From positions 1 through 59,057 of the forward strand of contig NZ_PPTQ01000018.1 of NCBI RefSeq assembly GCF_003340345.1: DNA of 59,057 bases. Reading direction: 5' to 3'. The translations under genes were made by a program, and so were the position numbers. The stretch comes from Paraeggerthella hongkongensis. Its GTDB lineage: Bacteria > Actinomycetota > Coriobacteriia > Coriobacteriales > Eggerthellaceae. Under the pieces are notes generated by a model. It worked only from the letters and a program-made list of their open reading frames with translations, did not search any database and was not told where the DNA came from. Shown here piece by piece: positions 4,754 through 58,570 of the stretch (position 1 is its first letter; each line of letters opens with the position of its first letter).

Positions 4754-4783
4754 AATGACCTCCTTGCTTTGGCGCCAATGCAA

Positions 4784-5992: not shown

Positions 5993-6014
5993 ACTTGTCT
6001 CCTACGTGGTTTCT

Positions 6015-43802: not shown

Positions 43803-44715
43803 AGCAACACAAAGGGCGGATGGAGGGAGTTGTCGCATCTGTCCTCTGTCGCTCGATGAGGATAAGGGCGCTTCAAAGAAGTAGACGCTGTGGGTTGTGG
43901 TTTCTTGCCGCAAATCCCATGTTTTACACTTAAAGGGGCTCCAGGCTTGTAGATTGTCTGTTCAACGGATAATTCTGTTTATCTTGGAGCCTCCTGAAGC
44001 GTGGTGATTCTTCAGCATCCCTTGATGTACGTGCGTTAGCTACCGTGCCCTTCGCTGCGCACTTGCTCAAACTTCATGGTGTGCAGCGTGGCTACGATTC
44101 GATTGCGGGTGGATTTGTCTTGAGCCTCCTCTCCGCGATGCGTAAGACCAGGAGCGGATGCAGCAGGTGAGGCTCGCGGATGCGGCCTTCGCGCGATAGG
44201 CAGACTGGGTGGGATTTGAATGGCTGGTGGCTCTGTCTGAGGCTTGTGTAATAATTTGTGTACTTTTTATAAGACTTACGCTGCTTTGGTCGCTTCTCTC
44301 GCGTCGGTGCCATGCTCTCGGGCAACGGTCGACTCCTTGTCATGCGAATATCGAAGTCCATTGCGATCGAGAAATGCAATCAACTTCGCTCCGTGTGCGG
44401 GCAAGGTCATTTCGCTTGCTGTCTCTCAGGCTGGGCAGAGATGGCGCAGCCTTCAGTTACTGCCTATATTTGACGGTGAATTCGGTCCTTTGAGTCATGC
44501 TCGGATTGCTCTATCAATCAACGCCTGCTATGAGGTCTTGCTAACTGCGTTTCTTTTTACTGCATGTCTGAAGGCACGACGCGAGTCATCTTGCTGTGCG
44601 GGTGGCGTGCTGGCGCTTGCGGCCTTAATTGAATTTGTAAGTTGAGTACCGGTTGAGCACCTGTCCAGTTTGATCTTGCAGTTGGTTTTCAGCGCGGTGA
44701 TACGCGCATGACGCA

Positions 44716-44724
44716 TGCTATAAT
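44716..44724 (+). promoter_or_regulatory. Extended -10 promoter of the methyltransferase operon
   Basis: TGCTATAAT (TATAAT at 44719-44724) lies about 105 bases before the methyltransferase ATG. No clear -35 is seen. The leader that would follow contains an AGGAG plus two-codon ORF (ATG CTG TAG, 44751-44759) and a perfect palindrome GGAGCGCTCC (44781-44790). Confidence 0.55.
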
Positions 44725-44790: not shown

Positions 44791-44829
44791 CTTGGACGGG
44801 TTTGATAGAAGCTGAGGAGGGTGAGGGCA

Positions 44830-45864
44830 ATGGCGAAGCATACGGCCGTTGATTTATTCTCCGGTGCTGGTGGCCTCTCCCAGGGGCTGCGACAGGCAGG
44901 GTTCAAGGTTATTGGAGCCCTTGAGGTGGACAAGGATGCTGCTGAGGTTTTTTCGATCAACCATCCGAAAACGAAGGTAATAGAAAAAGATATCTCTTCA
45001 GTATCCGTTGAGGAGGCGGCTCGATTATGGGGTCTCGAAAAAGGTGAGCTGGACTTGCTCGCGGGGTGTCCGCCGTGTCAGGGCTTTTCGACAATTGGAA
45101 CTCGAAATCGCGAGGCAGCACAAGACGACCCCCGTAATGAGCTTATTTTCGAAATGTTGCGTTTTGCTAGGGAGTTGCTGCCGAAGGCCATAATGATCGA
45201 AAACGTGCCAGCGCTGGCAAAAGATGAGCGTCTGAGGCGGTTTTGCAGCAGTCTAAAAGATCTGGGCTATGACTGTGACGTCAGGGTGCTTAACGTTCAG
45301 CAATACAAAGTACCGCAGCGTAGAAGGAGGATGATCCTTCTTGCCTCACGTGTGGGCAAGGTGACCGTTCGAGATGTTGATCTGACGGCGGGTAGTCCTA
45401 GAACTGTAAGGATGGCTTTCGGTAATCTGAATCCCGACTTTGTGCGCAGGGACTCTCTGTCTAGGTTGCATGGACGTCATTCTCAGCATGTTATGGACAT
45501 TATTCGTGCCGTCCCCCACGACGGGGGTGGGCGGCATGATCTTCCGGATTCTCTTGTGTTGGATTGTCATAGGAAAACCAGCGGTTTCAGGGATGTATAT
45601 GGAAGAATGTCGTGGGATTCTCCGTCTCCAACCATAACGTGTGGCTGCGCGAACCCTTCGAAGGGCAGGTTTCTTCATCCCGAGGAAGATCGGGCGATTA
45701 CATTGAGGGAGGCAGCGGTTTTGCAGACCTTCCCTTTGGGCTATTGCTTTCCGGTCGAAAAGGGGAGGCAAAGGCTGTCGACAATGATAGGAAACGCTCT
45801 CCCGCCGACGTTTATTGAATTCCATGCGCGCTGCGTCAAGGCTGTTTTGTCGCGTTCTTTCTAA
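44830..45864 (+). CDS. DNA (cytosine-5) methyltransferase
   Basis: A 344-residue C5 methyltransferase, complete by motifs: I FSGAGGLSQG (about 10-19), IV GCPPCQGFS with catalytic Cys83, VI IENVP (123-127), VIII QRRRRM (163-168), IX-X region LREAAVLQTFP and GNALPP near the end. The target recognition region lies between about 200 and 260 and is short. The ATG is preferred over GTG at 44821 because GAGGAGG (44814-44820) is nine bases upstream. The ATPase/nuclease gene starts ten bases behind, so the pair forms a restriction-modification-like unit. The methylated sequence is unknown. Confidence 0.93.
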   Translation: MAKHTAVDLFSGAGGLSQGLRQAGFKVIGALEVDKDAAEVFSINHPKTKVIEKDISSVSVEEAARLWGLEKGELDLLAGCPPCQGFSTIGTRNREAAQDDPRNELIFEMLRFARELLPKAIMIENVPALAKDERLRRFCSSLKDLGYDCDVRVLNVQQYKVPQRRRRMILLASRVGKVTVRDVDLTAGSPRTVRMAFGNLNPDFVRRDSLSRLHGRHSQHVMDIIRAVPHDGGGRHDLPDSLVLDCHRKTSGFRDVYGRMSWDSPSPTITCGCANPSKGRFLHPEEDRAITLREAAVLQTFPLGYCFPVEKGRQRLSTMIGNALPPTFIEFHARCVKAVLSRSF

Positions 45865-45874
45865 GGGGTAAGCC

Positions 45875-47701
45875 ATGTCGACATCTAACGATGCTAAAGA
45901 TATTGAGGCTATTCGCAGCATGAAGGCGGCTGGGCGGTTTGATCCGTACATAGAAGAGATCTCCTTTCCTCGTTTTAAGAGTCTAGAGCGCGGGCTGTCG
46001 ATCAGGTTCGATTTTCCCGTTACCGCTCTTGTCGGGCAGAATGGTACGAACAAGTCATCGATCTTGAGGGCCCTTCAATCATGCCCTGATCAGAATTCGA
46101 TAAGCGATTACTGGTTCGATACGGATCTTGACCATATCGAAAGCGAGCCAAACGACCGGCAACGATACATCCATAGATACAAAGTGCCTTCTGGAAACAC
46201 AGCGGAGGTTATAAAAATACGCATCCAGAAGGAAAGCAGGGGGGAGGATTACTTCGAGACGGCGAAACCGAGAATTCAGGATGGCATGCGTAGGATGCCG
46301 GACATGGTCGATGAGGACGCGCCGCATAGGGTGGGGACTCGCTGGCGGCCGATAAAGAAAGAAGTCATATACATCGATTTTAGAGCTCAGCTTCCTGCGT
46401 TTGATATCTTGATGAGCTATCAGAATCGTAAGAGCAGACGCGATGCAGCTCATCGCAAATCGTTGGTGCGTCTTAGGTCTCGTAGGTTGGAAGAGGTGAT
46501 TCGGAATTCAGTAAAAACGAGCACCGTGCGCGGTACCGAGCGTTTGCTGAGCGAAGTAGTGTCTTTGGGTGTTGAAGAGTTAAGGGATGTAGGAGAAATT
46601 CTTGGCAGAAGCTACGAGTCTATCAAGCTCGTAAAGCACGACTTGTACGACTATGAGGGATGGACTGCAAAGCTGGTGACTGCGGGTCTCGATTACTCCG
46701 AGGCTTTTGCAGGTAGCGGCGAGTTTGCCGCTATCTCTATCGTTCATGCATTGCATGAAGCTGAAAAGGGAAGCCTGATCTTGCTTGATGAGCCTGAGAC
46801 GTCGCTTCATCCCGGCGCTCAAGCGGCACTCTGCACGTTTTTTCTGAAAATGTGTAAGCGCAAGTTGTTCCAGATTGTTATGGCAACCCATTCGCGGGAA
46901 ATGGTGCAAGGCCTTCCGGCCGAAGGGAGGAAGCTGTTAGGGGTTGTACCTGGTGGATCGCAGATATCACTCATCTCTTCGAGTGCTTCGCTCGAAGAGG
47001 CTTCTTTGCGTCTGGGTGCAGACTTTGTGCAGGACGCTGTATTTGTAGAGGATGGCCTAGCCGCTGAGTTTCTTAAACATGCTTTTCGAAAAAAAGGGGA
47101 GGATGCTGTTGGCTCGGTTAGTATTGAGCCTATACCTGGAGGGGCTCAAACGATTAGCACTAGAATAATACCGGTGCTTTCCCAGCTCGACGCGAACGTC
47201 ATGGTTGTTTTAGACGGCGATCAGAACCCTGAACTTAGCTTTCAGGCTGCCTTGCCGACCGTTCATGAATGTTCTGAAGTATTGAAGGCGTTCGGGATAG
47301 AGTCCAAGCACATTCTAATGAATGGCGGAGATGGTGATAATGAAGGGCATCGGCTTGAGCAGATGAACAAAGTTCTTCTCTGGATTGAGCATCATGTTCG
47401 ATATTTGCCCGGGAAAGATCCAGAAGGTCTTTTGCTATCGATAGTCGATGGCGTTCCGATTGCGGACGATCGGGATAGGCCATCTGCTAGGGGGAATAAG
47501 GAGATTTGGCGCGAGAGGGCTGCTCGTGAGTATTCGAAATGCAAATGCGAGACGATTGATTCTGGGGAAATATTTTGTTACCAGAAGATGGAGCTTTCGA
47601 GGGCTTTTTCTGACGAATCGAATGATGTGGCGCAGGGCGTGATGCGAGAGTTGCTTGCGATCGTCGACGAACTGCTCGGCGACAGTCCTGGCAGACAATA
47701 G
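45875..47701 (+). CDS. OLD-like ATPase with C-terminal Toprim nuclease domain
   Basis: A 608-residue protein. The ATPase core has Walker A GQNGTNKSS (54-62), an ABC-type signature AGSGE (279-283), Walker B LILLDEPETS (301-310) and THS (338-340). The Toprim part follows: FVEDGLAAEFL with Glu392, then VVLDGDQ with Asp447 and Asp449, the metal-binding pattern of OLD-family nucleases. Family members cut or nick DNA in phage defence (OLD, GajA). The N-lobe insert (about 65-275) is unlike those I know. It lies ten bases behind the methyltransferase, so it is the likely restriction or sensing partner. A non-defence repair role is possible. Confidence 0.85.
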   Translation: MSTSNDAKDIEAIRSMKAAGRFDPYIEEISFPRFKSLERGLSIRFDFPVTALVGQNGTNKSSILRALQSCPDQNSISDYWFDTDLDHIESEPNDRQRYIHRYKVPSGNTAEVIKIRIQKESRGEDYFETAKPRIQDGMRRMPDMVDEDAPHRVGTRWRPIKKEVIYIDFRAQLPAFDILMSYQNRKSRRDAAHRKSLVRLRSRRLEEVIRNSVKTSTVRGTERLLSEVVSLGVEELRDVGEILGRSYESIKLVKHDLYDYEGWTAKLVTAGLDYSEAFAGSGEFAAISIVHALHEAEKGSLILLDEPETSLHPGAQAALCTFFLKMCKRKLFQIVMATHSREMVQGLPAEGRKLLGVVPGGSQISLISSSASLEEASLRLGADFVQDAVFVEDGLAAEFLKHAFRKKGEDAVGSVSIEPIPGGAQTISTRIIPVLSQLDANVMVVLDGDQNPELSFQAALPTVHECSEVLKAFGIESKHILMNGGDGDNEGHRLEQMNKVLLWIEHHVRYLPGKDPEGLLLSIVDGVPIADDRDRPSARGNKEIWRERAAREYSKCKCETIDSGEIFCYQKMELSRAFSDESNDVAQGVMRELLAIVDELLGDSPGRQ

Positions 47702-47915: not shown

Positions 47916-49133
47916 TTACAATCCAAGATAAAACCTGTAGATCTCTTCGTTCATCAAGGACCAGCCGTAATCGCTGGGATGGCAGTTATCTCGAAGGAAG
48001 TAGCTGCTCGCACTATAGTCTGAGAAGTCGGCAATCTTCACACCGTATTTCTCGCACGTGGCTCGCATTAGGTCGTAGTACATAGTGCGGTACTGGCTCG
48101 TATAGACGCTTTGGTCGTAAAGAATATCGCTTGAAGGGATCAGCATGACCAAAGGTTCGACGTTGCATTCCTTGCAGACTTGCAAAAACAATTCAAAGTC
48201 TTCCACTTCGCTTTTATTGAAAATGTTCGTGTCGTCCACAGTCCATTTTTCGGCGGCCTTTTGCCATTTTTCGTAAGCATTGTTGTAGAACCATTCGTCA
48301 AGGAATACGTCATTTTTTGACGCACGCGATTTGGTGTAGGCAAGGGCATCTTCTTGGATTGCCGTCCAATCCGGTTCTTCGGGATCGCCGAATCTTGTCG
48401 AAGGTATCGATTGGCTGAGGGTCTTCTTTTTGTTGAGCGTGATCAATTCGTCGCTGTTGGCAGGGGTGTTCAGGATATCGTAACGAAGCCGCACTGAGCT
48501 AGCGGCATCTGCGACTGCCGCATCTATGGCTTTGTATGATGTTGTGAGCGCGGTGGTGACGGGTGTTGTAGCGGTGAGAAACTTGCATTCGTAAGAGTCG
48601 AGTTTTTCTGAGACTTTCGCCTTGGTTTCGTTGGAAATTTCTTCGTTTTCAAGGAACTCACGATAGGCTCCTTTAGAGAAAGTTTCATTCAGCACGTCAT
48701 TTGAGTATTTGGTTCCTTCCATAAACCACTGCATGGAAGGAATTAGAACAACCTTGTTGCCGACGATTCCTTTGTTTGCGAAGGCTCCAACTACAATGGC
48801 GTCCCATAGATCGGAGACATGCGCGTATCCTTCAGCCATGATGTTCATTCCGTAGTTGTGGTCGGTCCAGAACCGGGCGGTGTACGATCTGTCAACGTAT
48901 GTATTAAGTTCGGAAGATGCCAGTACCAGCACTGGGTTGTCACCTTGCTCCACCCTGGCATCGTAATTTGCTCGTTGTAAATTGAAATCGCGAAGCTGTT
49001 CGAGCGAGCTGCAAACTATTAAGGGCTTGTCTTTGACCAGGTTGTCGTATGATCCGGCCGTTGTCAGAAATCCTCCTAAAACCCCTATTACAAGGGCGAA
49101 CCCGCCGAATAATCCTATAAAACGTTTGCTCAT
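47916..49133 (-). CDS. dltD: D-alanine transfer protein DltD
   Basis: A 405-residue extracytoplasmic protein with an N-terminal membrane anchor (about 7-28). The SGNH-like active site appears as LASSEL (Ser nucleophile) and DNCHPSDYGW near the C-terminus (Asp-His). DltD acts at the outer face in the last step of D-alanylation of teichoic acids. It is the last gene of the minus-strand dlt operon; AGAGG precedes its ATG. Confidence 0.92.
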   Translation of the reverse strand: MSKRFIGLFGGFALVIGVLGGFLTTAGSYDNLVKDKPLIVCSSLEQLRDFNLQRANYDARVEQGDNPVLVLASSELNTYVDRSYTARFWTDHNYGMNIMAEGYAHVSDLWDAIVVGAFANKGIVGNKVVLIPSMQWFMEGTKYSNDVLNETFSKGAYREFLENEEISNETKAKVSEKLDSYECKFLTATTPVTTALTTSYKAIDAAVADAASSVRLRYDILNTPANSDELITLNKKKTLSQSIPSTRFGDPEEPDWTAIQEDALAYTKSRASKNDVFLDEWFYNNAYEKWQKAAEKWTVDDTNIFNKSEVEDFELFLQVCKECNVEPLVMLIPSSDILYDQSVYTSQYRTMYYDLMRATCEKYGVKIADFSDYSASSYFLRDNCHPSDYGWSLMNEEIYRFYLGL

Positions 49134-49142
49134 GGCAACCTC

Positions 49143-49418
49143 TTAGAATCCTTCGTAAATTGGCTCGGTTGGAGTGCCGAACGGCGAAATGAAGAAAAAC
49201 CACGTCAGTAGAGCAAGACATACGAAAGCAACGAATAACCACATGAGGGCAGCTACCCACGAATCACCGAAGAATGTGACTCTTGTTTTTTCGGCAAAAG
49301 CGTAAGCCTTCGTTTTACAGTTTTCGTACCAAAGGGTAGCGGTGCTTTTCCGCATGGACCTGGCAGGCTTCTTCTCTGTTTCGTTGTTTTTCTTGATAAC
49401 GGGATTGGCGCTTGTCAT
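49143..49418 (-). CDS. dltX: DltX-like small membrane protein
   Basis: A 91-residue protein with a single membrane helix (about 55-78) and the C-terminal end TEPIYEGF. Firmicute DltX is about 50 residues with one helix and a conserved C-terminal FIYNEF-like motif that takes part in D-Ala transfer. The end here is a clear variant, with an extra ~45-residue basic N-terminus. In Firmicutes dltX precedes dltA; here it lies between dltC (three-base gap) and dltD (nine-base gap). Confidence 0.75.
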   Translation of the reverse strand: MTSANPVIKKNNETEKKPARSMRKSTATLWYENCKTKAYAFAEKTRVTFFGDSWVAALMWLFVAFVCLALLTWFFFISPFGTPTEPIYEGF

Positions 49419-49421
49419 GTC

Positions 49422-49661
49422 CTATAGCCTGATTTCTATTTGATGGATGATCTTGTTGACCGAATTCATCTCTTCGCGTTCCACGGCGGTGGGGGCTATC
49501 TCCACTCCGAATTCGCTCTCGATACCGACGAGCAGTTCGATAGCACCCATGGAATCGAGCAGTCCCGCTTCGAACAGGTCGATATCGCGTTCTTCACGTA
49601 CTACATCGTCCGCGCAGATCTCTTCAAGTAGATCCAACGTCTTCTCTTCAATGTTGTTCAT
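49422..49661 (-). CDS. dltC: D-alanyl carrier protein DltC
   Basis: A 79-residue acyl-carrier-type protein with the phosphopantetheine attachment Ser in DSMGAIELL and typical acidic composition. It receives D-alanine from DltA and presents it to DltB. Its start overlaps the dltB stop (TAATG), giving coupled translation. Confidence 0.93.
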   Translation of the reverse strand: MNNIEEKTLDLLEEICADDVVREERDIDLFEAGLLDSMGAIELLVGIESEFGVEIAPTAVEREEMNSVNKIIHQIEIRL

Positions 49662-50842
49662 TACAGGAGTCCTTTCACTATGAGAGCGGCTTGCCCGCTA
49701 AACAAGCTGAAACCAAGCATGATCAAGTTCAGCGTAATTATCCAGGATATGGCTTTAAACCAGATTTCGTTTTTATAACGCTTGTAGAAGCTCGACTTCT
49801 TTTGAAAAACGTCGGTTAGGGCCAGGAGAACGCCGTGGTATGCACCATAGAGTAGATAATCCACTGTTAGGCCGTGCCATGCGCCCATGAGCGTCATGTT
49901 GATGATGTAGCCGCAGCAGGCGCTTGTCAGGCGGTTCTTTATCAGCTTGCGCTTAGTGACGGAGCGGACGAAGCGCATGAACACGAAGTCGCGCAGCCAA
50001 AACGAGAGCGTGATATGCCACCGGTTCCAGAAGTCCTTCATGTCGAGCGCCGCAAACGGTGCGCGGAAGTTCCTCGGAGTTTTGATTCCGAAGCAGTAAC
50101 TTGCCCCTATGGCCATCATGGAGTAGCCGGCGAAGTTGAAGAATAAGAATAGCCCATAGAACCAGGCGTCCTTCCCGGCTGCTGCTATATTGAATAAGAG
50201 CGATTTTGTTTCCCGGAACTCATGAAAGTCGAAAAACTGAGTGCAGAGCGTAGCGATAACCATCTGGTATACAGCGCCAACAAGCAAGAGGAGGATGCCG
50301 CGACTAAGCAGATCGGCATACTCCGACTTACTGAAACGCTTGGCTGCATCTTCCATGAAGCGGCGTGAGCGGTCGATGGGACCTGAAGTGATCACTGGGA
50401 AAAAAGATATGAAATACAGATAGTCCAGTAAGGTCATGTCCGTGATAAGCCCGTCGCGGATTTCGATGACCACTTGTGCGGCTTTGAACGTTACGTATGA
50501 TATGCCGATGAAGCCTAGCAAGCTGCTGTCAAGAAGGCCACTTATTTTGTAGATGATCAGAGGCGCGATGGTTGCGGCAAGGCAAGTTCGATAGACCGCG
50601 ATGGATTTCTTCCCTTTTGTCCAATTATGCTGAGTGATGAAAGTGGCGCTTGCTGCCACGAGAAGAAAGATGCCGAACATGGCCAGCTGTTTAACGTCGT
50701 CGGCAAACAACAATACGACGAACAGCGTCGTTATCGCCATGCCGTATGGTCGTATTCTGCGACCAGAGAAGCCCAGCATGGCTGCGGGCACGATGCTTAT
50801 AGCCAGTAGAATGAAAAAGGATGGAGATGTGTAAAAGCCCAT
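49661..50842 (-). CDS. dltB: D-alanyl transfer protein DltB (MBOAT family)
   Basis: A 393-residue polytopic MBOAT enzyme with about ten hydrophobic segments, FWNRWHITLSFWLRDF and the catalytic His region MGAWHGLTVDYLLYG. It moves D-alanine from DltC across the membrane. The start at MGFYTSP is preferred; the frame extends 17 codons upstream into the dltA end with an unlikely sequence. Confidence 0.93.
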   Translation of the reverse strand: MGFYTSPSFFILLAISIVPAAMLGFSGRRIRPYGMAITTLFVVLLFADDVKQLAMFGIFLLVAASATFITQHNWTKGKKSIAVYRTCLAATIAPLIIYKISGLLDSSLLGFIGISYVTFKAAQVVIEIRDGLITDMTLLDYLYFISFFPVITSGPIDRSRRFMEDAAKRFSKSEYADLLSRGILLLLVGAVYQMVIATLCTQFFDFHEFRETKSLLFNIAAAGKDAWFYGLFLFFNFAGYSMMAIGASYCFGIKTPRNFRAPFAALDMKDFWNRWHITLSFWLRDFVFMRFVRSVTKRKLIKNRLTSACCGYIINMTLMGAWHGLTVDYLLYGAYHGVLLALTDVFQKKSSFYKRYKNEIWFKAISWIITLNLIMLGFSLFSGQAALIVKGLL

Positions 50843-50855
50843 AAGTAACGCGTCC

Positions 50856-52430
50856 TTATGCTTTATTCTGCGCGGCGAGCACCTTGCGGTCAAGCTTGCC
50901 GTTGGGGGTGACGGGCATCGAATCGATGAATGCGATTTTTTTTGGGATCATGTAATGGGGCAGTGTGGATTTCAATGCGTCTTTCAGGGTCAAGCCTTCT
51001 TGAAAGTCTGACTTTTCTCGGGGCGAAGCGCTGACTATGTATGCCACTAAGTGGGTGAGTCGACCGTTGCGATACGCGGGCACTACGCATGCGGCGGATA
51101 CTTGGTCGAGTGCACTTAAGTGCTCCTCTATTTCGCCGAGTTCTATGCGATAGCCATTGAGCTTGACTTGCAAGTCGAGCCGGCCACGAAAATGCAGTTG
51201 ACCGCAAGGGTCGAGCAATCCTTCGTCTCCCGTGCGATAATACCGCGTCGGCCCTTGACGACCAGTAAGCCAGGAGCCGTCCGATTCGCCGAACGACTTC
51301 GCTGTAAGGTCGGCACGTCCGAAATAGCCCTTGGCTACGGTATCTCCTTCAATGACGATCTCGCCCCATTTTCCGTTAGGGAGATCGCTTCCGTTGCAGT
51401 CTACGATGCGGATGCGGGTGCCTGTGCGCGGCGAACCGACGGTTAAGGGTTCTGGCGATTCGATCATCTCGGGGGATACTTCGACGGATGTTACGGCCAC
51501 GGTTGATTCTGTGGGTCCGTATGTATTCATGATGCGCAGCTTGGGGAAGCGTTCGGAAACCTTGTGCGCGGTTTGGTTGGTCAGGGTTTCGCCACAGAAC
51601 ACCATAGTCGCAAGATCTGGCATGAGGTTGCGACAAAAATCCTTGTTTGCTAGGCATATATCTGCGAACGAGGGCGTAGATACCCATATGTCAGGACTTG
51701 TTTCTTTGAAAAACTGGAGCATTTCTGCAGGGTGATCAAGCGTTTCTTTTTCCAGGCATAGAAGAGTGCCGCCGCTCGCCAGCGCCATGGTCAACTCGTA
51801 TACCGATAGGTCGAATGAGAATGGCGCTTGGTTGAGAAACTTCATACTCGTCTTGTCGACGCATGCGATTTCGAGCGCCCATGGGAAGAAGTTGTCTACA
51901 CACGAGGCGGTGACTTGAACTCCCTTGGGAGTGCCGGTTGATCCTGAGGTAAATATGATGTACATGAGGTCTTCGCCTGATATAGCGGTTTCCCCGCATT
52001 CGAATAATGTTCCTTGGTTTGCGATGTTCTGCAGGGCTTCGGGGGCTATGACGGTCAAGTTTTGGACTGTCGTCTCAGGAAAGGGGAGGGAAGCCAAAAC
52101 CAGGACCTTTTCGGCTTTCATTTTGATCTGCTCTGCTATCGACGACACCCTGTCTTCGGGAACGGAGTGGGCGTCGATGGGAACGTAAGCGTGGCCTGAT
52201 CGCATGCATGCGAGGAAGCTTGCCAGCATGAGCGACGATTTGTGTCCATATGCGATTACGGGGTCGTTGTTCGCCGGTAGGATTTCGTTGATGTGTGCGG
52301 CGATCGAACCAGAGTACGACCAAAGCTGACCGTAGGTCAGCGAACTGTTGGAACGGGTTGTCGAGCCGATAAGAACTGGTGCGTTGGGTTGTTGCTTGCT
52401 GAGAATGCGCACCCTGTCAAGGAACTGCAT
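50856..52430 (-). CDS. dltA: D-alanine--carrier protein ligase DltA
   Basis: A 524-residue adenylating enzyme that activates D-alanine with ATP and loads it on DltC. Motifs: YIIFTSGSTGTPKGV, NTYGPTESTVA, YYRTGDEG, GRLDLQVKLNGYRIELGEIE, and the C-terminal Lys in NGKLDRK. I choose ATG at 52430 (MQFLDRV) because the frame from 52493 runs through a TATAAT promoter element at 52482-52487 and would exceed the usual length of about 505-515. First gene of the dlt operon. Confidence 0.93.
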   Translation of the reverse strand: MQFLDRVRILSKQQPNAPVLIGSTTRSNSSLTYGQLWSYSGSIAAHINEILPANNDPVIAYGHKSSLMLASFLACMRSGHAYVPIDAHSVPEDRVSSIAEQIKMKAEKVLVLASLPFPETTVQNLTVIAPEALQNIANQGTLFECGETAISGEDLMYIIFTSGSTGTPKGVQVTASCVDNFFPWALEIACVDKTSMKFLNQAPFSFDLSVYELTMALASGGTLLCLEKETLDHPAEMLQFFKETSPDIWVSTPSFADICLANKDFCRNLMPDLATMVFCGETLTNQTAHKVSERFPKLRIMNTYGPTESTVAVTSVEVSPEMIESPEPLTVGSPRTGTRIRIVDCNGSDLPNGKWGEIVIEGDTVAKGYFGRADLTAKSFGESDGSWLTGRQGPTRYYRTGDEGLLDPCGQLHFRGRLDLQVKLNGYRIELGEIEEHLSALDQVSAACVVPAYRNGRLTHLVAYIVSASPREKSDFQEGLTLKDALKSTLPHYMIPKKIAFIDSMPVTPNGKLDRKVLAAQNKA

Positions 52431-52481
52431 GGGAGTGGGGCCTTTCGCGCCGGAGTGCTGTATTCGTGAATCCAAAAGGTC

Positions 52482-52487
52482 ATTATA
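52482..52487 (-). promoter_or_regulatory. Possible -10 element of the dlt operon
   Basis: TATAAT on the minus strand about 52 bases before the chosen dltA start. A weak GGACAA sits about 20 bases upstream as a candidate -35. It would make the 22 codons before MQFLDRV largely untranslated leader. Confidence 0.45.
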
Positions 52488-52493
52488 CAACAT

Positions 52494-52908
52494 GGAAACG
52501 GCGTGTTGTCCGATCGGCGGTTAGGTGCCGTTGGAATGCTCCTGCTGCAATCCCTCCGAAATCTATCCGAAATTTATGAAACCTGGAATCAAGCCACGAG
52601 GGGCGTTTGCGCTTGTTTTGGCGAAACGAGACTCCCACTTGACTGCGGTGCTTCCAAGTGCGGCATTGTTTATCAGTAGCTCACGGTTTGTGATAGTTCT
52701 TCTCGTGGAATCGCAACGTGGGAATTGGCGGTAATCGATTTGCGATATGAATAAGGCCTAAGCTTTTCGAGCCTAATTTATACTATTGTGGGTTTTGTAT
52801 AAATAAGAACACGGACCCTCGGGACTCTAATTGCGTCGAAGCCTTCGTGCGGCATGAAAGATCGTCGATTCCTTGCTTGGACAGATGCCGCGTCTGTTGC
52901 TTGTTTTC
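52494..52908. other. Intergenic stretch without a convincing gene
   Basis: Lies between the dlt operon promoter and the 3' end of the large membrane protein gene, both on the minus strand. It includes an AT-rich part (about 52735-52815). Short ORFs here lack ribosome sites. Confidence 0.5.
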
Positions 52909-54930
52909 CTATTGATCGATTTCGTACAACCGCATGTTTCCCTCGCTCATAAGGAGCGTGAAACCGGGGGTCTTCTCGTCGATGGATTCGATGCCTGCCC
53001 AGTTCTCCTTTTTGTATCGCATGCCAGTGGTCGTGCGGTCGTTGCTTGTGATTTCATCCAGCATGAGGACGTATCGTGCGTCCAGTCGATCCACAACGTT
53101 TCGCACTTCGTCGGATACGCTGATGTCGCAAAGTTGCGTTCGGATGATCTTGCTGTCTTCCGCTCCGCTCATGCCGGTGTTCGCTGAGCGGCGGAAGTAA
53201 GTGTTGATCCCTTCCACACCGTAGCTCCAGCAGCTGCCATCGCTTGGCACGTTGACGACGAGCGCGTCCTCGGGAATCTGGCCCATGACTTTCTTGATGA
53301 ACGCGTCTTCCTCGCCGGTTAGAATACGATCCCAGGAATAGCGGGCGGTCACCTCGCTGCGAATCTTTGTCAGGCCTGCTGCTAAGTCTACTTTTTCAGT
53401 CAGCTTCACGTTGCCGGGAAGGAACTGGCAGGCTGCGAGCAGGATGAGCAGCATGCCCAGAGATAAGCCCGCGTTCATGTCTGTAGAGCTGCCCTTGAAC
53501 ACTATTCCTAGCCAGGTTTTCAGGGCTTTCAGCATCCAAGAGAATCCCAGAGCGGCAAGGGGTATGGCGAAGAACGCAGCCATAGCCCCCAAACGATGAT
53601 AGTCGGTGTACCAGAACCCCGCAATCACATGCTTGAACACGCCATCGGTCGACACGCTGACGAGGTATGATAGCAAGGCGAACGCATAAGCTACGCTAAG
53701 CCAGAGGTATCGCTTGTTTCTGCATGTGTGGATGATGCCAACAAGCACGACAATGCTGAGAAAGGGCTGTACGCCGCCTCTTGACGTGAACATGAAACTC
53801 AGGCCGCTTGCAAGCGCCACTGCAGGAGACAAGGTCGCTTCCCAAGTATATTGAACAACAGTTTGCATGAAGGGAGCAAGGTGCAAGATCGCCCAGGCGG
53901 CGCATGCCGCGGCGAAAAGTGCAATGGCACCTGCAATGCGCTTGCGAGATAGGTTCGGCTGCTTGCTGCCGGGCGCGTAAAAGATTCGATTCACGCAGTA
54001 CAGCACGACCCAAATTCCGAATGTGAATGCTCCGTTTGGTTGGCAGAGCGCAATGGCTACGAGCCCTATGATCGATACCGCGGCAAGTTTGAGCTTGTCG
54101 GATGCGCGTTTCGCCTCAATTGCTTCTGCGAGGGGGACGAACGCTAAGGGTATGAGCATGAACGAGACCATGTTCGAAAACAGCTGACCGAATACGATGA
54201 ATCCCCAAGGGAACCCGCAGAACGCTACGGTGAAGAGCGACCCTGCCAAGACGGTGCGTTTGCGTTGCCCGAAGATCTTCAAGAGCAGTAGACACATACC
54301 CAAAGGAAACACGATAACGACGAACGTCACGACCGAGGCGTTCGCGGCCAGCGCGACATTGTTGTCGAATAGCGATGCAACAACGGCTGTTACGACGTGC
54401 CATCCGGCCGGATAGTACCAAGAATCGGGGTTCTGCGCTAAATACGAGCTGACATGGAGGGTGGAGTAGGTTCCCGTGTCTAGAAACGAGCGTACTACGG
54501 AAAGATGCACAGTGGTGTCGTCGTTTCTGGAGAACGACTCCGGACCATCGATGGGCAAAAGAAACGTCAGGGTTGTGATTGCGAAGGCTACGGTCAGATA
54601 AAGGGCTGCCGTCTTGCATGCTTCTTTGGTGTCGCCGACTGTTGCGAGGCATTCTCGATTATCGACGCCCCGAACCTTTCTCAAGCACCTCGCACCGAGC
54701 ATCGCGATTAAGCAGATACCCGCTGTCATTGTAAGCAGGCCGAAGCCGGAAGACGCAACGTCCAGTTCGAAGAGAGCAACGCCTAATACCGTAAAAACGA
54801 AGATGGATAGGGCGGGGGCGATAACGGCGGCGGCAAATCGGTCGATCGAGAATGCTCGCGCAAGCATGAAGCCGGGTACGTACAGCGCGATGGCGTAAGC
54901 CAAGATGGCAAGGGCAAGCGTAAACCACAT
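52909..54930 (-). CDS. Large polytopic membrane protein, DUF6541-like, probable glycan enzyme
   Basis: A 673-residue protein starting at MWFTLALAIL behind AAGGAG; the frame upstream of it is not protein-like. About 12-14 hydrophobic segments fill the first ~510 residues. An early external loop contains SRNDDTTVHLSVVRSF and WYYPAGWH, resembling GT-C type enzymes and their lipid-sugar loop. The last ~160 residues are soluble and probably extracellular. Such proteins in Actinobacteria are often found in arabinan, rhamnan or other surface polymer loci. Role is inferred only. Confidence 0.75.
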   Translation of the reverse strand: MWFTLALAILAYAIALYVPGFMLARAFSIDRFAAAVIAPALSIFVFTVLGVALFELDVASSGFGLLTMTAGICLIAMLGARCLRKVRGVDNRECLATVGDTKEACKTAALYLTVAFAITTLTFLLPIDGPESFSRNDDTTVHLSVVRSFLDTGTYSTLHVSSYLAQNPDSWYYPAGWHVVTAVVASLFDNNVALAANASVVTFVVIVFPLGMCLLLLKIFGQRKRTVLAGSLFTVAFCGFPWGFIVFGQLFSNMVSFMLIPLAFVPLAEAIEAKRASDKLKLAAVSIIGLVAIALCQPNGAFTFGIWVVLYCVNRIFYAPGSKQPNLSRKRIAGAIALFAAACAAWAILHLAPFMQTVVQYTWEATLSPAVALASGLSFMFTSRGGVQPFLSIVVLVGIIHTCRNKRYLWLSVAYAFALLSYLVSVSTDGVFKHVIAGFWYTDYHRLGAMAAFFAIPLAALGFSWMLKALKTWLGIVFKGSSTDMNAGLSLGMLLILLAACQFLPGNVKLTEKVDLAAGLTKIRSEVTARYSWDRILTGEEDAFIKKVMGQIPEDALVVNVPSDGSCWSYGVEGINTYFRRSANTGMSGAEDSKIIRTQLCDISVSDEVRNVVDRLDARYVLMLDEITSNDRTTTGMRYKKENWAGIESIDEKTPGFTLLMSEGNMRLYEIDQ

Positions 54931-55161
54931 GACGGGACTCCTTGAGGGGACGTTCGGTCTCGATCGTAGGAATAGGCGAGACAGAAGGCCATTATAGATG
55001 CTCCCATGGATCCTGTCTGCTCTTTTCGTTCTGGAGACTGTATCCAAAACGAAAAGCAGCAAGGATCCCCATGCTATTATGGTTCGTCGGTTATCGGGAA
55101 ATGCGAGAGGGGTGCGTGCTTGTCTGGTTCGGACAACGGGTCGAGGAGGACGCAGTACCGG

Positions 55162-56319
55162 ATGACGACTGGATCTCCGGGGTTGAACCGCGCTCGAGAA
55201 GAGCGTCGGCTCGAAGAATCTTCGCGTGTTTCGCAGGGGGCCTCGCGCCATGCGCTGATGCCTTATCGGCCGAATGCCCGAGTTCTATATCCCGACTACA
55301 TAAGGAAGCGCAAGCGGAGGAGGATTGCAAAGCGGATCTCCTTGTGCGTGCTTGCGATTCTGCTGGCGGTCGTTTGCGCGACGGGCGGCTACGCGGCTTG
55401 GTATTCGTCGGCGCTCGATAGCGCTCTGTCTATGGGTTCCGAGCAAGATGCTTCCGTGGACGAGGCGCTTTCCCTCAGCGTGGCCGATCAGCCGTTCTAC
55501 GCGCTTGTGCTGGGGTCGGACTCGCGTGAAGGGTCTGGCACGTCCAGCAAAGAGGCGGAGTCGGGTGGTAATCAACGCTCCGATGTGATGATTTTGCTGC
55601 GTGTGGACGCACGTGCAAATCAAGTCACTATGGTGTCGATCCCGCGTGATACGCCGTATGCGCTCGACGATGGCAGAGTCGTCAAGGTTAACGAAGTGTA
55701 CAACATAGGAGGAGCTGCTGCTTCCATCAAGGCGGTTTCCAAGATAACGGGCGTTCCCGTCTCCCATTATGCTGAAATTCATTTTTCCGAGCTTCAGTCC
55801 CTTGTTGATAAGCTGGGCGGCGTGACGGTGAACGTGGATGTGGAGTTGTCGTACAAGGATGCTCTTACGGGCGAGAAGGTTACCGTTTCTCCGGGAGTCC
55901 AGACTATCACCGGGCAGCAAGCGCAGATATTTGCTCGTGCGCGGCATGAGTACGTCACCGACCAAGATGCCCATCGTCAAAACAATGTGAGGTCGTTGGC
56001 GATGGCTATCGTGAAGAAGGTTCTCGACCGGCCTGCTTACGAGCTTCCGGGCACGGTGCTGGATCTGGCCTCGTACGTTGGCACGGACATGAAGACTGGC
56101 GATATAGTGTCGCTTGCTCTGGCTTTTTCGAAAGGGTCGGGCGCTCCGGTTATGTACAGCTGTTCGGGGCCGGACAAGGGGGACATCAACGAAAGCGCAG
56201 GCGGAATATGGCTGTGTTACGAGAATCCGCAAGGATGGGCCGATCTTATGGCGGTGGTTGATTCTGGCGGGAATCCTGAGGGAATGGACGTGAACGCGAC
56301 GGCGATCGTTCCCGAATGA
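55162..56319 (+). CDS. LytR-CpsA-Psr (LCP) family glycopolymer ligase
   Basis: A 385-residue protein with a basic cytoplasmic N-terminus (RKRKRRRIAKR), a membrane segment at about 57-80, and an LCP domain: LVLGSDSREG, SIPRDTPYA with the conserved Arg-Asp, and FARARHEYVTDQDAHRQ. It is expected to attach glycopolymers to peptidoglycan. The start at MTTGSPG follows GAGGAGG by about 12 bases; the upstream frame to 55006 is less likely. Divergent from the membrane protein gene before it. Confidence 0.9.
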   Translation: MTTGSPGLNRAREERRLEESSRVSQGASRHALMPYRPNARVLYPDYIRKRKRRRIAKRISLCVLAILLAVVCATGGYAAWYSSALDSALSMGSEQDASVDEALSLSVADQPFYALVLGSDSREGSGTSSKEAESGGNQRSDVMILLRVDARANQVTMVSIPRDTPYALDDGRVVKVNEVYNIGGAAASIKAVSKITGVPVSHYAEIHFSELQSLVDKLGGVTVNVDVELSYKDALTGEKVTVSPGVQTITGQQAQIFARARHEYVTDQDAHRQNNVRSLAMAIVKKVLDRPAYELPGTVLDLASYVGTDMKTGDIVSLALAFSKGSGAPVMYSCSGPDKGDINESAGGIWLCYENPQGWADLMAVVDSGGNPEGMDVNATAIVPE

Positions 56320-56426
56320 GTCGGCAAAGAATTTGAGGCGCCGTGAAATGAAGGCGAAAAGCGTCTCGCCCGAAAGGGCGTAGAGTGATAACCTGATCCG
56401 GTTGCTTGTACGAAGGGTGGAATTAT

Positions 56427-57395
56427 ATGAGTATTAAGAAGAAGGTTGTTGCGCTTCTAGGGTGCGCGGCTCTCGCATTTTCGCTGATTGGATGTCAGCA
56501 AAGCGAGACAAAGGAGCCTGAGCCAACGGACGTTCAATTGATGCAGGATGCGGGCGATACGCGCATGGATCAGCCGTTCTACGTTCTGGTGGTGGGCAAC
56601 GATTCGCGCACCGGGACTGTTGAAATCGACAAACCTGATTATGCAGACGGATCCGGCCGGTCGGACACTACGATGCTTGTGCGCGTCGACCCTACCACCT
56701 ATCAAGTGGGGATCGTCACAATTCCTCGCGATACCGCTATCTCGCTTAATGGGCAGACTATGAAGTTCAACGAAGCCTATCATGCTGCCGGCATCGAAGA
56801 AACCTTGCATCAGGTCAAATTGCTTACCGGCGTCTCTCCTTTGTACTATATGGACATGAGCTTCGTCCAGTTCGAGAAATTCGTGAATGAGCTTGGCGGG
56901 CTGACGGCAAATGTGCCCATCGATATGGGGTTGCAAGATATTGTGTCCGGCAGCAAAATCTCGCTTTCCGCGGGCGTGCAAGATCTCGATGGCGCGGAAT
57001 CGCTTGTTCTGGCGCGCTCTCGCAAGGTGTACGAGGTTGATCAGGATGCTTGTCGTCAGATCCAGGATCGCCAGCTGGTGGAGGTTGGCATTAAGAAAGT
57101 AGCGGCTGACCCTGCGGGTGCTGCGGCGCACGTGCAGGCGCTCATGTCCAATGTGAATACGAACTGGCCTGCCGACGATTTGGCTAAGACCGTAGCGGAC
57201 TTTGCTGCGAATGCGGATAAGATTGCATTTGTATCCGGCACGGGGCCGTACGGCGGCGATATTGATGAAGCGGCTGGTGGTATATGGCTTGCTACGCGTG
57301 ACGAGGCTGCGTGGAAGCAAGTCATCCAAGCAGTCGAGGCGGGAGAGGATCCCACCACCGTAGTTCCTTTGCCTCAGATTATTGCCAAGAACTAA
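56427..57395 (+). CDS. LCP family glycopolymer ligase, predicted lipoprotein
   Basis: A 322-residue protein. The short signal peptide ends in a lipobox (FSLIGC, Cys at about 23), so it should be lipid-anchored instead of carrying a transmembrane helix as most LCP proteins do. LCP domain: LVVGNDSRTG, TIPRDTAIS, LARSRKVYEVDQDACRQ. The Ser of the usual GSDSR is Asn (GNDSR). GGTGG lies seven bases before the ATG. It follows its paralogue in the same direction. Confidence 0.88.
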   Translation: MSIKKKVVALLGCAALAFSLIGCQQSETKEPEPTDVQLMQDAGDTRMDQPFYVLVVGNDSRTGTVEIDKPDYADGSGRSDTTMLVRVDPTTYQVGIVTIPRDTAISLNGQTMKFNEAYHAAGIEETLHQVKLLTGVSPLYYMDMSFVQFEKFVNELGGLTANVPIDMGLQDIVSGSKISLSAGVQDLDGAESLVLARSRKVYEVDQDACRQIQDRQLVEVGIKKVAADPAGAAAHVQALMSNVNTNWPADDLAKTVADFAANADKIAFVSGTGPYGGDIDEAAGGIWLATRDEAAWKQVIQAVEAGEDPTTVVPLPQIIAKN

Positions 57396-57422
57396 ACCCT
57401 TTGCTTGACGAAGGGCGGCCGA

Positions 57423-57465
57423 AGCGACCGAGAAGGGCGGTTACCGTCCCTCTCGGTCGCTTTTC
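57423..57465. terminator. Terminator hairpin between convergent genes
   Basis: AGCGACCGAGA (57423-57433) pairs with TCTCGGTCGCT (57451-57461), followed by TTTTC on the plus strand. It ends the LCP transcript; its right arm also encodes the last residues (KKSDREGR) of the convergent GT gene. Confidence 0.75.
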
Positions 57466-58550
57466 TTCGCCAGATATTCACGCAGCGTCTTCCAGGTGAA
57501 TGCGGGTCCGACGTTCTTGAGGTTGTAACAGCCCTGCTTCACGAGGCCCCATGCGTAGGGGAGCTTGCTTGGATTGGGGTCGGGCAAACCGCGGAGCTCC
57601 GCGAACAGGCGCTTGCTGCCGGGAGATATTTCCGAATCGGACAGTACCAGATCGGCGTTCATGCGTGCGAGCATAGAGGCTGCTTCGGCTCGCAGTTCGG
57701 GATTGTCGAGGCTTACCTCTTCCAGGACCCCTCCCAGGTACGTGAATCCACGGCTGTTGTGCGCGCGCAAGATACTTTCGTCGTGAACATGCAGGTTTTC
57801 CAGCACATCCATCATGTCGTTCCAGCGCGCGAAGGGCAGCATCGTGTTGTTGAGGGCGAACGCCTTCGATTTTTCCGGCGTTTCCTCGCGATAGCAGTAG
57901 TAGGGCGTGTCCAGGTACCCGATACGGTCGGTCTGGCATAGGGTTTCCAGTAGGAACGGGTTGTCGGCCCAGCCAGCTCCTGGATATTCGCGGAAGCGTA
58001 TGCCCCGATCGTCCAGGAAGCTTTTGCGATAGACGGCTGACCAGATGGAAGGATGGTGCGAGAGCAGGTGGGCTGCCTCTCGTATGGCGAAAGGCTGTCG
58101 CGCCGGCTTGATGCGGCTGCGGTAGCTGCAGTTCAGCTTGCGCTGCTCGGGCGTGTCGGGCATCCAGATGCGCCAATAGGGAGTTTTCACGATGTCGAGC
58201 TCTTCGTTGAACCCGTTGGCGAATGCGAGCATGTCGGCATACATGCCGGCCTCGATCCAGTCATCGGGCTCCACGATGGAGATCCAAGTGCCGGTTGCTT
58301 CTTGCAGACCGCGGTTGCATGTGGCCCCGTACCCTTCGTTTTGCTTGTCGATCACGCGAACGCGGTCGTCTTGAGCGGCGTACGCTTGCATGGCCTTCAA
58401 CGAGTCGTCCGTACTGCCATCGTTCAGGCAGATAACTTCAAGGTTACGATGTGTTTGCGCCAGGATGCTGTCCAGGCACTGCTCGAGGTACGGCCCCGCG
58501 TTGAAGATGGGGACGATAACGGAGACCAGCTCGTTGTTCGCGTTATGCAT
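57441..58550 (-). CDS. GT2 family glycosyltransferase
   Basis: A 369-residue protein starting at MHNANNELVS with AAGGAAAG upstream. GT-A motifs: VSVIVPIFNAGPYLEQC, LNDGSTDDS, KQNEGYGATCNRG, and VEPDDWIE as the metal site. Helical C-terminal part. It resembles GT2 enzymes of capsule and teichoic-acid decoration clusters. It follows the repeat protein gene by about 20 bases on the same strand. Confidence 0.87.
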   Translation of the reverse strand: MHNANNELVSVIVPIFNAGPYLEQCLDSILAQTHRNLEVICLNDGSTDDSLKAMQAYAAQDDRVRVIDKQNEGYGATCNRGLQEATGTWISIVEPDDWIEAGMYADMLAFANGFNEELDIVKTPYWRIWMPDTPEQRKLNCSYRSRIKPARQPFAIREAAHLLSHHPSIWSAVYRKSFLDDRGIRFREYPGAGWADNPFLLETLCQTDRIGYLDTPYYCYREETPEKSKAFALNNTMLPFARWNDMMDVLENLHVHDESILRAHNSRGFTYLGGVLEEVSLDNPELRAEAASMLARMNADLVLSDSEISPGSKRLFAELRGLPDPNPSKLPYAWGLVKQGCYNLKNVGPAFTWKTLREYLAKKSDREGR

Positions 58551-58570
58551 GAGGGTCTTTCCTTCTCTCG

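What the first reader, a model, noticed from the sequence alone, without database searches (positions are those of the whole stretch)
44830..47701. Two-gene candidate defence system: cytosine-5 methyltransferase plus OLD-like ATPase/Toprim nuclease
Seen: a complete C5 methyltransferase and, ten bases behind, a protein with ABC-type ATPase motifs and Toprim Glu and Asp-x-Asp residues, under one probable promoter. Known: OLD-family proteins act in phage defence alone or with a helicase (Gabija) or other partners. I do not know a described system that pairs one only with a C5 methyltransferase. Inference: methylation marks self DNA and the OLD-like protein cuts unmodified DNA, a restriction-modification unit with an unusual nuclease.
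Basis: partly seen in the sequence, partly recalled or inferred. Interest (0 to 1): 0.75.

Follow-up and report, generated by a model that had tools for sequence, protein, structure and literature searches.

The report
Prophage-borne methylase and nuclease defence pair
Two neighbouring genes, one that should mark DNA with a methyl group and one that looks like an ATP-driven nuclease, recur together in distant bacteria and in prophages, and most likely form an unnamed restriction-modification-like antiviral system, though no activity has yet been tested.

Summary
In detail: an intact DNA cytosine-5 methyltransferase at 44830-45864 and, ten bases behind, an intact 608-residue ABC ATPase-Toprim protein at 45875-47701. 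The pairing is real. Leaving out the window and three E. coli loci fetched with the partner in view, 65 of 67 intact relatives of the ATPase-Toprim gene (many near-identical) have a C5 methyltransferase in the same locus, and 41 of 45 non-redundant ones have it within 300 bp. All four gene arrangements occur. A near-identical E. coli form is in 31 of 5,426 genomes; the three of these I read lie in Rac-like prophages. From the methyltransferase side, 32 of 40 enzymes of one motif class lie beside the ATPase-Toprim gene, against 0 of 40 others. Key ATPase and Toprim residues are invariant in 47 members. PADLOC gives only partial matches (HEC-04 best). I found no paper on the pair, but a key 2020 ABC-ATPase survey could not be read. 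Best reading: an RM-like two-gene cassette in which 5mC marks self and the ABC-Toprim protein is the effector. Whether it cuts invading DNA or acts on host targets (its Toprim fold is at least as close to the tRNase AriB) is undecided.

The parts
44697..44724 (+). promoter-like site (GTGATA, 16 nt, TATAAT)
   Evidence: 10 of 12 consensus bases, but not above the shuffle expectation for the region; a candidate only
44830..45864 (+). DNA cytosine-5 methyltransferase, 344 aa (alternative GTG start at 44821)
   Evidence: PF00145 1.2e-57; TIGR00675 5.7e-48; the only PF00145 match at E<=1e-20 in its genome
45073..45078 (+). methyltransferase motif IV Pro82-Cys83 (Cys catalytic by family knowledge)
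   Evidence: invariant in 16 of 16 aligned members
45592..45606 (+). DVYGR segment of the C-terminal target-recognition/motif IX region that marks this methyltransferase class
   Evidence: 43 of 45 non-redundant partners have D[VM][YM]GR and 45 of 45 have [NK]GR[FY]; 0 of 29 distinct control C5 methyltransferase ORFs have either
45875..47701 (+). ABC ATPase-Toprim protein, 608 aa (putative effector)
46034..46057 (+). Walker A GQNGTNKS (residues 54-61)
   Evidence: G54, N56, G57, K60 in 47 of 47; residue 59 is Asn in 36, Gly in 10, Ser in 1
46709..46723 (+). ABC signature AGSGE (residues 279-283)
   Evidence: invariant in 47 sequences
46775..46792 (+). Walker B LILLDE (residues 301-306)
   Evidence: D305 and E306 in 47 of 47
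46985..47698 (+). C-terminal Toprim-fold region (residues 371-608)
47048..47053 (+). Toprim Glu392-Asp393
   Evidence: 47 of 47
47213..47221 (+). Toprim Asp447-Gly-Asp449
   Evidence: 47 of 47
47423..47425 (+). Glu517, candidate further catalytic residue
   Evidence: 46 of 47; catalytic role inferred
47498..47500 (+). Lys542, candidate further catalytic residue
   Evidence: 47 of 47; catalytic role inferred

Best explanation
This is a two-gene, restriction-modification-like defence cassette. SHOWN: the genes are intact, the second is predicted with an ABC ATPase head followed by a Toprim fold with all key residues, and relatives of both are kept side by side in distant bacteria and in viral contigs and prophages, usually with no third constant partner. 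INFERRED: the methyltransferase places 5-methylcytosine at a fixed motif in the cell's own DNA. The ABC-Toprim protein dimerises through its ATPase head, engages DNA lacking the mark, and uses the Toprim active site (E392, D447, D449, probably E517 and K542) to nick or cut it, so an entering phage genome is attacked and the cell or prophage carrying the pair is spared. Prophages would carry it to exclude rival phages.
For: Pairing: in 54 of 56 viral-contig relatives a C5 methyltransferase ORF lies next to the ATPase-Toprim gene. Of 78 loci, 71 have an intact ATPase-Toprim gene and 69 of these have the methyltransferase in the locus; without the four loci chosen with the partner in view 65 of 67, and 41 of 45 non-redundant ones have it within 300 bp. 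Among 45 non-redundant pairs, 31 are tandem with the ATPase gene first, 7 with the methyltransferase first, 6 convergent, 1 divergent, so shared transcription alone does not explain it. From the methyltransferase side: 32 of 40 class members against 0 of 40 others; dereplicated 19 of 27 against 0 of 30, p=3.5e-9. Distances of the two proteins correlate (Mantel r 0.72, 0 of 5,000 permutations). Key residues invariant in 47. Vsr mismatch endonuclease genes within 500 bp of the methyltransferase in 3 of 44 non-window pairs, fitting real genomic 5mC. The ATPase-Toprim gene is broken beside an intact methyltransferase in L020, L026, L074, L077, L085 and E. coli EC11; the reverse was not seen. Methyltransferases of the same class can instead sit beside GHKL ATPases, a context published as RM-like (PMC2292703, passages).
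Against: No activity, methylation motif or phage phenotype is known to me for any member. The C-terminal fold is as near to the tRNase AriB (Z 8.1) as to OLD DNases (Z 6.4-6.8), and Z near 8 is itself only moderate. Intact ATPase-Toprim genes without a near methyltransferase exist: L011 (a good match elsewhere in its genome, probably about 30 kb off on the same contig) and L024 (a C-terminal fragment about 7.7 kb upstream at the edge of the locus); L013 (1,038 bp) and L068 (4,587 bp) are not adjacent. Eight of 40 class methyltransferases lack the gene within 500 bp. In L025, L061 and L069 a UvrD helicase-nuclease type gene lies within 3 kb of the pair as well (Pfam only for L025), so some systems may be larger. 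The broken-gene bias (6 to 0) is only suggestive: the ATPase-Toprim gene is longer, and by length alone p is about 0.07. The window's own pair is partly discordant: its ATPase-Toprim protein is sister to L009's, its methyltransferase is not (quick trees with some long branches).
Confidence: 0.6

Rival explanations
1. Methylation-guarded abortive system. The ABC-Toprim protein is a PARIS-like sensor-effector held off by the methyltransferase or by 5mC on host DNA. Phage attack on host DNA or on the methyltransferase (for example by anti-restriction proteins) releases it and it cleaves tRNA or host DNA to stop the infected cell.
For: The isolated C-terminal domain's best structural match is AriB of PARIS (Z 8.1; OLD 6.4-6.8; unrelated rows about 4). 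AriB cleaves tRNA (PMC12409363, abstract and passages). The nearest PADLOC model, HEC-04, is homologous to IbfA, described as abortive (PMC12111858, abstract and passages). In two E. coli prophages read, another C5 methyltransferase beside antiterminator Q is paired with a HEPN protein and a GmrSD_N protein.
Against: Differences in Z of about 1.3 decide little, and Foldseek ranks OLD Toprim domains above AriB. Nothing here shows RNA cleavage. A sensor of anti-restriction proteins would not obviously need one methyltransferase motif class in 45 of 45 partners.
Confidence: 0.25
2. The methyltransferase gives the specificity: both proteins act as one complex on unmodified sites (a Type I/III-like logic with an ABC-Toprim motor).
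For: The partner is of one motif class although the methyltransferase lineages differ and were probably exchanged at least once; distances of the two correlate.
Confidence: 0.1
3. Chance or hitch-hiking neighbours: a solitary methyltransferase beside an independent single-gene OLD/HEC-04-like defence protein.
For: Both gene types are common cargo of defence islands and prophages (general knowledge); HEC-04 is described as a single ATPase-Toprim protein that defends on its own (PMC12111858, passages).
Against: Recurrence in all four arrangements and in 65 of 67 loci not selected for pairing; 32 of 40 against 0 of 40 from the other side.
Confidence: 0.03

Closest known systems
HEC-04 / IbfA (Hma-embedded candidate 4)
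   Same: ABC ATPase fused to Toprim; the HEC-04 model is matched by all 16 members scanned and is the best model for the window's protein and the E. coli one
   Different: The best stretch covers only positions 114-385 of 494 of that model. R64 IbfA aligns over 208 columns at 25% identity, is 518 aa against about 600, has a canonical Walker A (GPNGSGKS), and no annotated methyltransferase gene stands near it.
PARIS (AriA/AriB)
   Same: ABC ATPase plus Toprim; best fold match of the C-terminal domain
   Different: In PARIS the two domains are usually separate genes (PMC10568477, passages); AriB cuts tRNA; the passages I saw name no methyltransferase partner.
OLD nucleases, Classes 1-3, and Gabija
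   Same: N-terminal ABC ATPase, C-terminal Toprim with invariant Glu and Asp residues
   Different: The classes are set by partner: none, UvrD-like helicase, retron (PMC10568477, passages; the words methyltransferase and methylase do not occur in its text). Here the partner is a C5 methyltransferase.
MORC/paraMORC restriction-modification systems
   Same: C5 methyltransferase beside an ATPase, often with Vsr (PMC2292703, passages)
   Different: The ATPase there is GHKL, here ABC-Toprim. Both kinds occur beside the same methyltransferase class.
Type II restriction-modification
   Same: C5 methyltransferase next to a putative nuclease
   Different: The nuclease is an ATPase-Toprim protein, not one of the usual restriction endonuclease folds.
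CxC-DndE ABC-ATPase systems with cytosine methylases
   Same: ABC ATPase recruited with a cytosine methylase (PMC10853773, passages)
   Different: Those are built on DndE and further nucleases; no Toprim fusion is described in the passages seen.

Membership tests
DNA cytosine-5 methyltransferase (PF00145) | family profile match over the whole domain with motif IV Cys, ENV and QxRxR motifs | tested here: met
OLD-like ABC ATPase-Toprim proteins | ABC ATPase head with Walker A, signature, Walker B and H-loop | tested here: met
OLD-like ABC ATPase-Toprim proteins | C-terminal Toprim fold with conserved Glu and DxD | tested here: met
   AriB Z 8.1 over 158 residues, OLD 6.8 over 156, unrelated rows about 4; Foldseek's best E is only 1.8e-3
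OLD-like ABC ATPase-Toprim proteins | metal-dependent nuclease activity | not testable with these tools
   none
Gabija (Class 2 OLD) | adjacent GajB UvrD-like helicase | tested here: not met
   the genes on either side of the pair in the window are a glycosyltransferase and DltD; the E. coli cassettes read hold only the two genes. A UvrD-type gene lies within 3 kb in L025, L061 and L069.
Class 3 (retron) OLD | adjacent reverse transcriptase and ncRNA | tested here: inconclusive
   the annotated E. coli cassettes show no reverse transcriptase; Rfam was not run
PARIS | AriA plus AriB (or the AriAB fusion) | tested here: inconclusive
   AriA and AriAB models match partly and below HEC-04 for the window's protein; the fold of the C-terminal domain is related
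HEC-04 | full-length match to the HEC-04 model | tested here: inconclusive
   best PADLOC model for P0002 (1.3e-35), in two stretches at the looser limit, the best one 180-457 on 114-385 of 494; no cut-off is given for PADLOC models
HEC-04 | acts as a single gene | tested here: not met
   a C5 methyltransferase is in the locus in 69 of 71 loci with an intact gene; this tests gene context, not function
Type II restriction-modification | methyltransferase and nuclease genes linked as a unit | tested here: met
Type II restriction-modification | nuclease and methyltransferase act on the same motif; methylation blocks cutting | not testable with these tools
   none
Druantia type II | DruM with DruE/F/G genes | tested here: not met
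   DruM is merely a close methyltransferase model; the two genes upstream and the one downstream in the window match no PADLOC model
MORC/paraMORC RM | GHKL ATPase partner | tested here: not met
   the partner is ABC-Toprim

The most novel reading that the evidence does not exclude
A separate, widespread type of methylation-dependent immunity in which a C5 methyltransferase is coupled to an ABC-Toprim effector that does not read a site by itself but senses loss or absence of 5mC (or the state of the methyltransferase). It then destroys the invader or, PARIS-like, the cell's tRNA or DNA. The same methyltransferase class would serve as a platform on which different ATPase effectors (ABC-Toprim, GHKL, UvrD-nuclease) are exchanged.
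Probability: 0.3. Interest if true: 0.8.

Novelty: new variant of a known kind. Interest (0 to 1): 0.62.

Why it matters
It would add a partner class to the OLD family (none, helicase and retron are described; here a DNA methyltransferase) and a new effector kind to cytosine-methylation-based immunity. It is present in E. coli prophages, including strain ATCC 8739 (a widely used laboratory strain, from recall), so it is testable at once with standard coliphages and nanopore methylation calls. It would also bear on the open question of how OLD-type ATPase-Toprim proteins tell self from non-self: here a self mark is encoded next door.

Tried and rejected
Direct searches of genome contigs and viral contigs with P0002 alone found no relatives, and A1 found none in viral contigs; more relatives appeared only after one distant relative (L009) allowed an alignment. 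No match in the phage records. Plasmid matches cover less than 80% of the query and are at most 34% identical. Of the three plasmid contexts read, two have no annotated methyltransferase beside the match and one (Rhodococcus) stands beside a type I RM operon.

Kin of the window's genome: besides the genome itself, one weak match among 60 relatives and one genome with weak matches among 138 family genomes. In 396 and 395 phylum genomes (largely the same sample) one full-length relative, G496, and one partial one, G474, besides the window's own. No clean empty site: with the one other genome of the genus only the dlt side aligns well.

WonAB (OLD-ABC plus PD-(D/E)XK) was considered and rejected: 'Toprim' and 'methyltransferase' do not occur in that paper's text (PMC12137116, passages). 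PAO1161's OLD protein and methyltransferase are unlinked, and the paper found the RM system independent of the OLD gene (PMC6945700, abstract and passages). A B. glumae paper lists an ATP-dependent nuclease and a cytosine methyltransferase in one region, but there a UvrD helicase gene is adjacent to the nuclease (PMC12755741, passages).

Literature: ten searches gave no paper on this pair in the listings and passages I saw; the longer listings were capped (30 of 55 papers, 10 of 114). The 2020 ABC-ATPase survey (PMC7544218) and the 2023 OLD review (DOI from memory) are not held, and the HEC preprint is outside the library, so a prior in-silico mention cannot be excluded. REBASE could not be consulted. 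PMC9122126 has no 'methyltransferase' in its text.

My first thought that exchange of methyltransferase lineages disproves a shared target was dropped when all 45 partners showed the same motif class. I did not attempt to infer the methylation motif from site avoidance.

Circularity and bias: the class motifs and model A3 come from paired enzymes; one search used DV[YM]GR as a search pattern and kept the best 80 of 484, ranked by similarity; its numbers test association, not abundance, and many of its contigs are those. In one search I also ran L133 and L134 (not class, no ATPase-Toprim gene); they are left out of the 40. L087-L089 were fetched through a search with a paired query. In one search three pairs of control loci showed the same enzyme; the recount by distinct ORF is 29 over 25 loci, 27 of them at least 300 aa, none with either motif. 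For the broken-gene count I set aside L048 (contig end) and L027 (broken, no methyltransferase in the locus).
Full report
1. What is there. The window holds an intact C5 DNA methyltransferase (44830-45864) followed after ten bases by a 608-residue protein (45875-47701). The first matches PF00145 at 1.2e-57 and is the only PF00145 match found in its genome at E<=1e-20. The second has ABC-type ATPase motifs. AlphaFold2 models it with mean pLDDT 89.6. The head resembles OLD, GajA, PtuA and SMC heads. The C-terminal domain folded alone (pLDDT 90.9) matches AriB of PARIS at Z 8.1 (158 residues), a Pyrococcus protein at 7.5, OLD Toprim domains at 6.4-6.8 and GajA at 5.0-6.2, with unrelated folds at about 4. 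Foldseek ranks OLD Toprim domains first, though only at E 1.8e-3. Walker A Lys60, signature S281-G282-E283, Walker B D305-E306, His339 and Toprim E392, D393, D447, D449 and K542 are invariant in 47 aligned members, the window's included; E517 is kept in 46. Asn replaces the usual Walker A Gly before the Lys in 36 of 47. ATPase and Toprim sites are thus conserved together.

2. Is the pair real? The gene is rare near the window's organism: besides its own genome, one weak match in 60 relatives and one genome with weak matches in 138 family genomes. One distant relative in the phylum (L009; 40-44% identity by method) has a C5 methyltransferase next to it in convergent orientation. An alignment of the two found 17 further loci in named genomes of Actinomycetota, Pseudomonadota and a myxococcal MAG. 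Enlarged to 16 sequences it found 56 loci in viral contigs. A C5 methyltransferase ORF lies beside the gene in 54 of the 56; of the exceptions, L048 ends inside the gene and L068 has the methyltransferase 4.6 kb away.

3. Counts. Of 78 loci (window, L009, 17, 56 and three E. coli regions) 71 have an intact ATPase-Toprim gene and 69 of these have a C5 methyltransferase in the locus. The window and the three E. coli loci were selected with the partner in view; without them it is 65 of 67, 63 within 300 bp. Many viral loci are near-identical. Non-redundant (<80% identity) and unselected there are 43 with a methyltransferase in the locus, 41 of them within 300 bp, plus the two without, L011 and L024, whose proteins are at most 55% identical to the others: 41 of 45. 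L013 (1,038 bp) and L068 (4,587 bp) are the distant ones. The genomes of L011 and L024 hold C5 methyltransferase sequence elsewhere: L011's a good match at 45139-46185 of contig C5, probably about 30 kb off on the same contig; L024 a C-terminal fragment at the locus edge about 7.7 kb upstream. Among 45 non-redundant pairs (window and one E. coli pair included) 31 are tandem with the ATPase gene first, 7 tandem with the methyltransferase first, 6 convergent and 1 divergent.

4. The other direction. A search with the methyltransferase alignment returned the best 80 viral loci of 484. Of these 40 carry the class motifs D[VM][YM]GR and [NK]GR[FY]; 32 of the 40 have the ATPase-Toprim gene within 500 bp, against 0 of 40 without the motifs. 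Dereplicated: 19 of 27 against 0 of 30, p=3.5e-9. Of the eight class members without it, L183 has it 1.4 kb away behind a Mutator-family transposase gene; L136, L143, L145, L176, L181 and L184 have a GHKL (HATPase_c_3) gene on that side (in L136 behind one other ORF); L144 has a UvrD helicase-PD-(D/E)XK fusion. MORC and paraMORC GHKL ATPases with cytosine methylases and Vsr were published as restriction-modification systems (PMC2292703, passages). As control, C5 methyltransferases from the 60 relatives of the window's genome (44 places in 26 genomes, loci given for 30): 0 of 29 distinct control ORFs over 25 loci carry either motif, and none of those loci has the ATPase-Toprim gene at E<=1e-5. 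Of 45 non-redundant partners, 45 carry [NK]GR[FY] and 43 carry D[VM][YM]GR. The limits of this test (shared contigs, motif used as pattern) are told under Tried and rejected.

5. Prophage cargo. In the five annotated E. coli regions read, the pair sits as a two-gene cassette in lambdoid prophages, on the strand opposite to its phage neighbours: in Rac-like prophages between Hok/Gef and DUF977 genes, and in two other prophages next to antiterminator Q. The Rac-like form (>=99% identical) occurs in 31 of 5,426 complete E. coli genomes, including ATCC 8739, all on chromosomes; I read the surroundings in three of the 31. Around 44 non-window pairs, families that recur in at least three loci within 3 kb (the first twelve listed) are phage genes by eye, Vsr (5 loci), and a UvrD helicase-nuclease type protein in L025, L061 and L069 (Pfam for the L025 copy). 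Vsr lies within 500 bp of the methyltransferase in L013, L025 and L061, and 2-3 kb off in L065 and L069. The window's own copy stands between a glycosyltransferase gene and dltD, with no phage gene among the ORFs examined.

6. Trees (quick method). The ATPase-Toprim proteins form one family; the window's is sister to L009's (SH-aLRT 99) inside a group of five, the three named ones Actinomycetota (100). The methyltransferase tree differs: the window's groups with viral-contig enzymes (54% identical to L045's) in a set of 15 (97), while L009's pairs with L025's (100) (the tree warns of long branches at L009/L023 and L013). So the partner was probably exchanged at least once, for another member of the same motif class. 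Overall the distance matrices agree (Mantel r 0.72, 0 of 5,000 permutations), though shared ancestry contributes; 20 of 43 pairs share the same nearest neighbour in both.

7. Broken genes. In L020, L026, L074, L077 and L085 and in E. coli EC11 the ATPase-Toprim gene is in pieces or truncated beside an intact methyltransferase; an intact ATPase-Toprim gene beside a broken methyltransferase was not seen. Sequencing error cannot be excluded. By gene length alone six of six would occur with p about 0.07, so this only leans towards a methyltransferase that protects.

8. Mechanism. The pairing in every orientation, the constant methyltransferase class, Vsr as occasional companion, the exchange of ABC-Toprim for GHKL modules beside the same methyltransferase class and the direction of gene decay together favour an RM-like system. 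The 5mC mark is read, directly or through the methyltransferase, by the ATPase, and the Toprim site is the effector. Whether it cuts invading DNA or acts on host targets is open: OLD and GajA act on DNA (PMC10568477, passages) and AriB on tRNA (PMC12409363, abstract and passages).

9. Known or new. In PADLOC-DB 2.0.0 the HEC-04 model is matched by all 16 members scanned and is the best one for the window's protein, but with only part of it aligned in the best stretch; ATPase-Toprim_I-B, AriA, Old, PtuA and GajA follow. The E. coli member behaves alike. PHROGs has a family of unknown function, phrog_3940, matched by all 16. The OLD review sets classes by context, and the words methyltransferase and methylase do not occur in its text (PMC10568477, passages). 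Ten full-text searches showed no paper on the pair. The ABC-ATPase survey of 2020, which a 2026 paper credits with describing Toprim-linked OLD-ABC neighbourhoods (PMC12839542, passages), was not readable here. I therefore call it a new variant of a known kind, not a new kind.

Noticed in passing
L133 (NZ_AP022298.1) 4205-7063 and L134 (NZ_CP024855.1) 4179-7040: E. coli prophages carry, beside antiterminator Q, a C5 methyltransferase overlapping a convergent HEPN_MAE_28990 protein and a GmrSD_N (DUF262) protein (Pfam for L133): another methyltransferase-effector cassette at a like place.
   Followed up: partly
L136, L143, L145, L176, L181, L184: Methyltransferases of the same motif class stand near GHKL (HATPase_c_3) ATPase genes in viral contigs; in L136, L176 and L181 these also match HEF_HK and HATPase_c.
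   Followed up: partly
L144 4962-9189: Same methyltransferase class overlapping a gene for a UvrD helicase-PD-(D/E)XK nuclease fusion.
   Followed up: no
L025 11180-14503, also near the pairs in L061 and L069: A UvrD helicase-PD-(D/E)XK type gene recurs within 3 kb of three pairs that also have Vsr nearby.
   Followed up: partly
L011 9961-11712: The Agromyces relative without a neighbouring methyltransferase is next to a convergent GmrSD-type (DUF262) gene.
   Followed up: no
L013, L025, L061: Vsr-type mismatch endonuclease genes (PF03852) within 500 bp of the paired methyltransferase.
   Followed up: yes
window 5144-43802 and 47916-58586: The pair is embedded between cell-surface polysaccharide genes (LicD, glycosyltransferases, a glycerophosphotransferase-like protein) and a dlt operon on the other strand (DltD and an AMP-binding enzyme by Pfam).
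   Followed up: partly
G000:C52 54782-55590: The genome has a second stretch 68-73% identical to part of the dlt region of the window.
   Followed up: no
P0002 residues 54-61: Walker A has Asn instead of Gly before the Lys in 36 of 47 members, Gly in 10; the effect on ATP use is unknown.
   Followed up: partly
PHROGs phrog_3940: Phage protein family of unknown function that all 16 scanned members match (best 2.1e-67); this work suggests a role for it.
   Followed up: no
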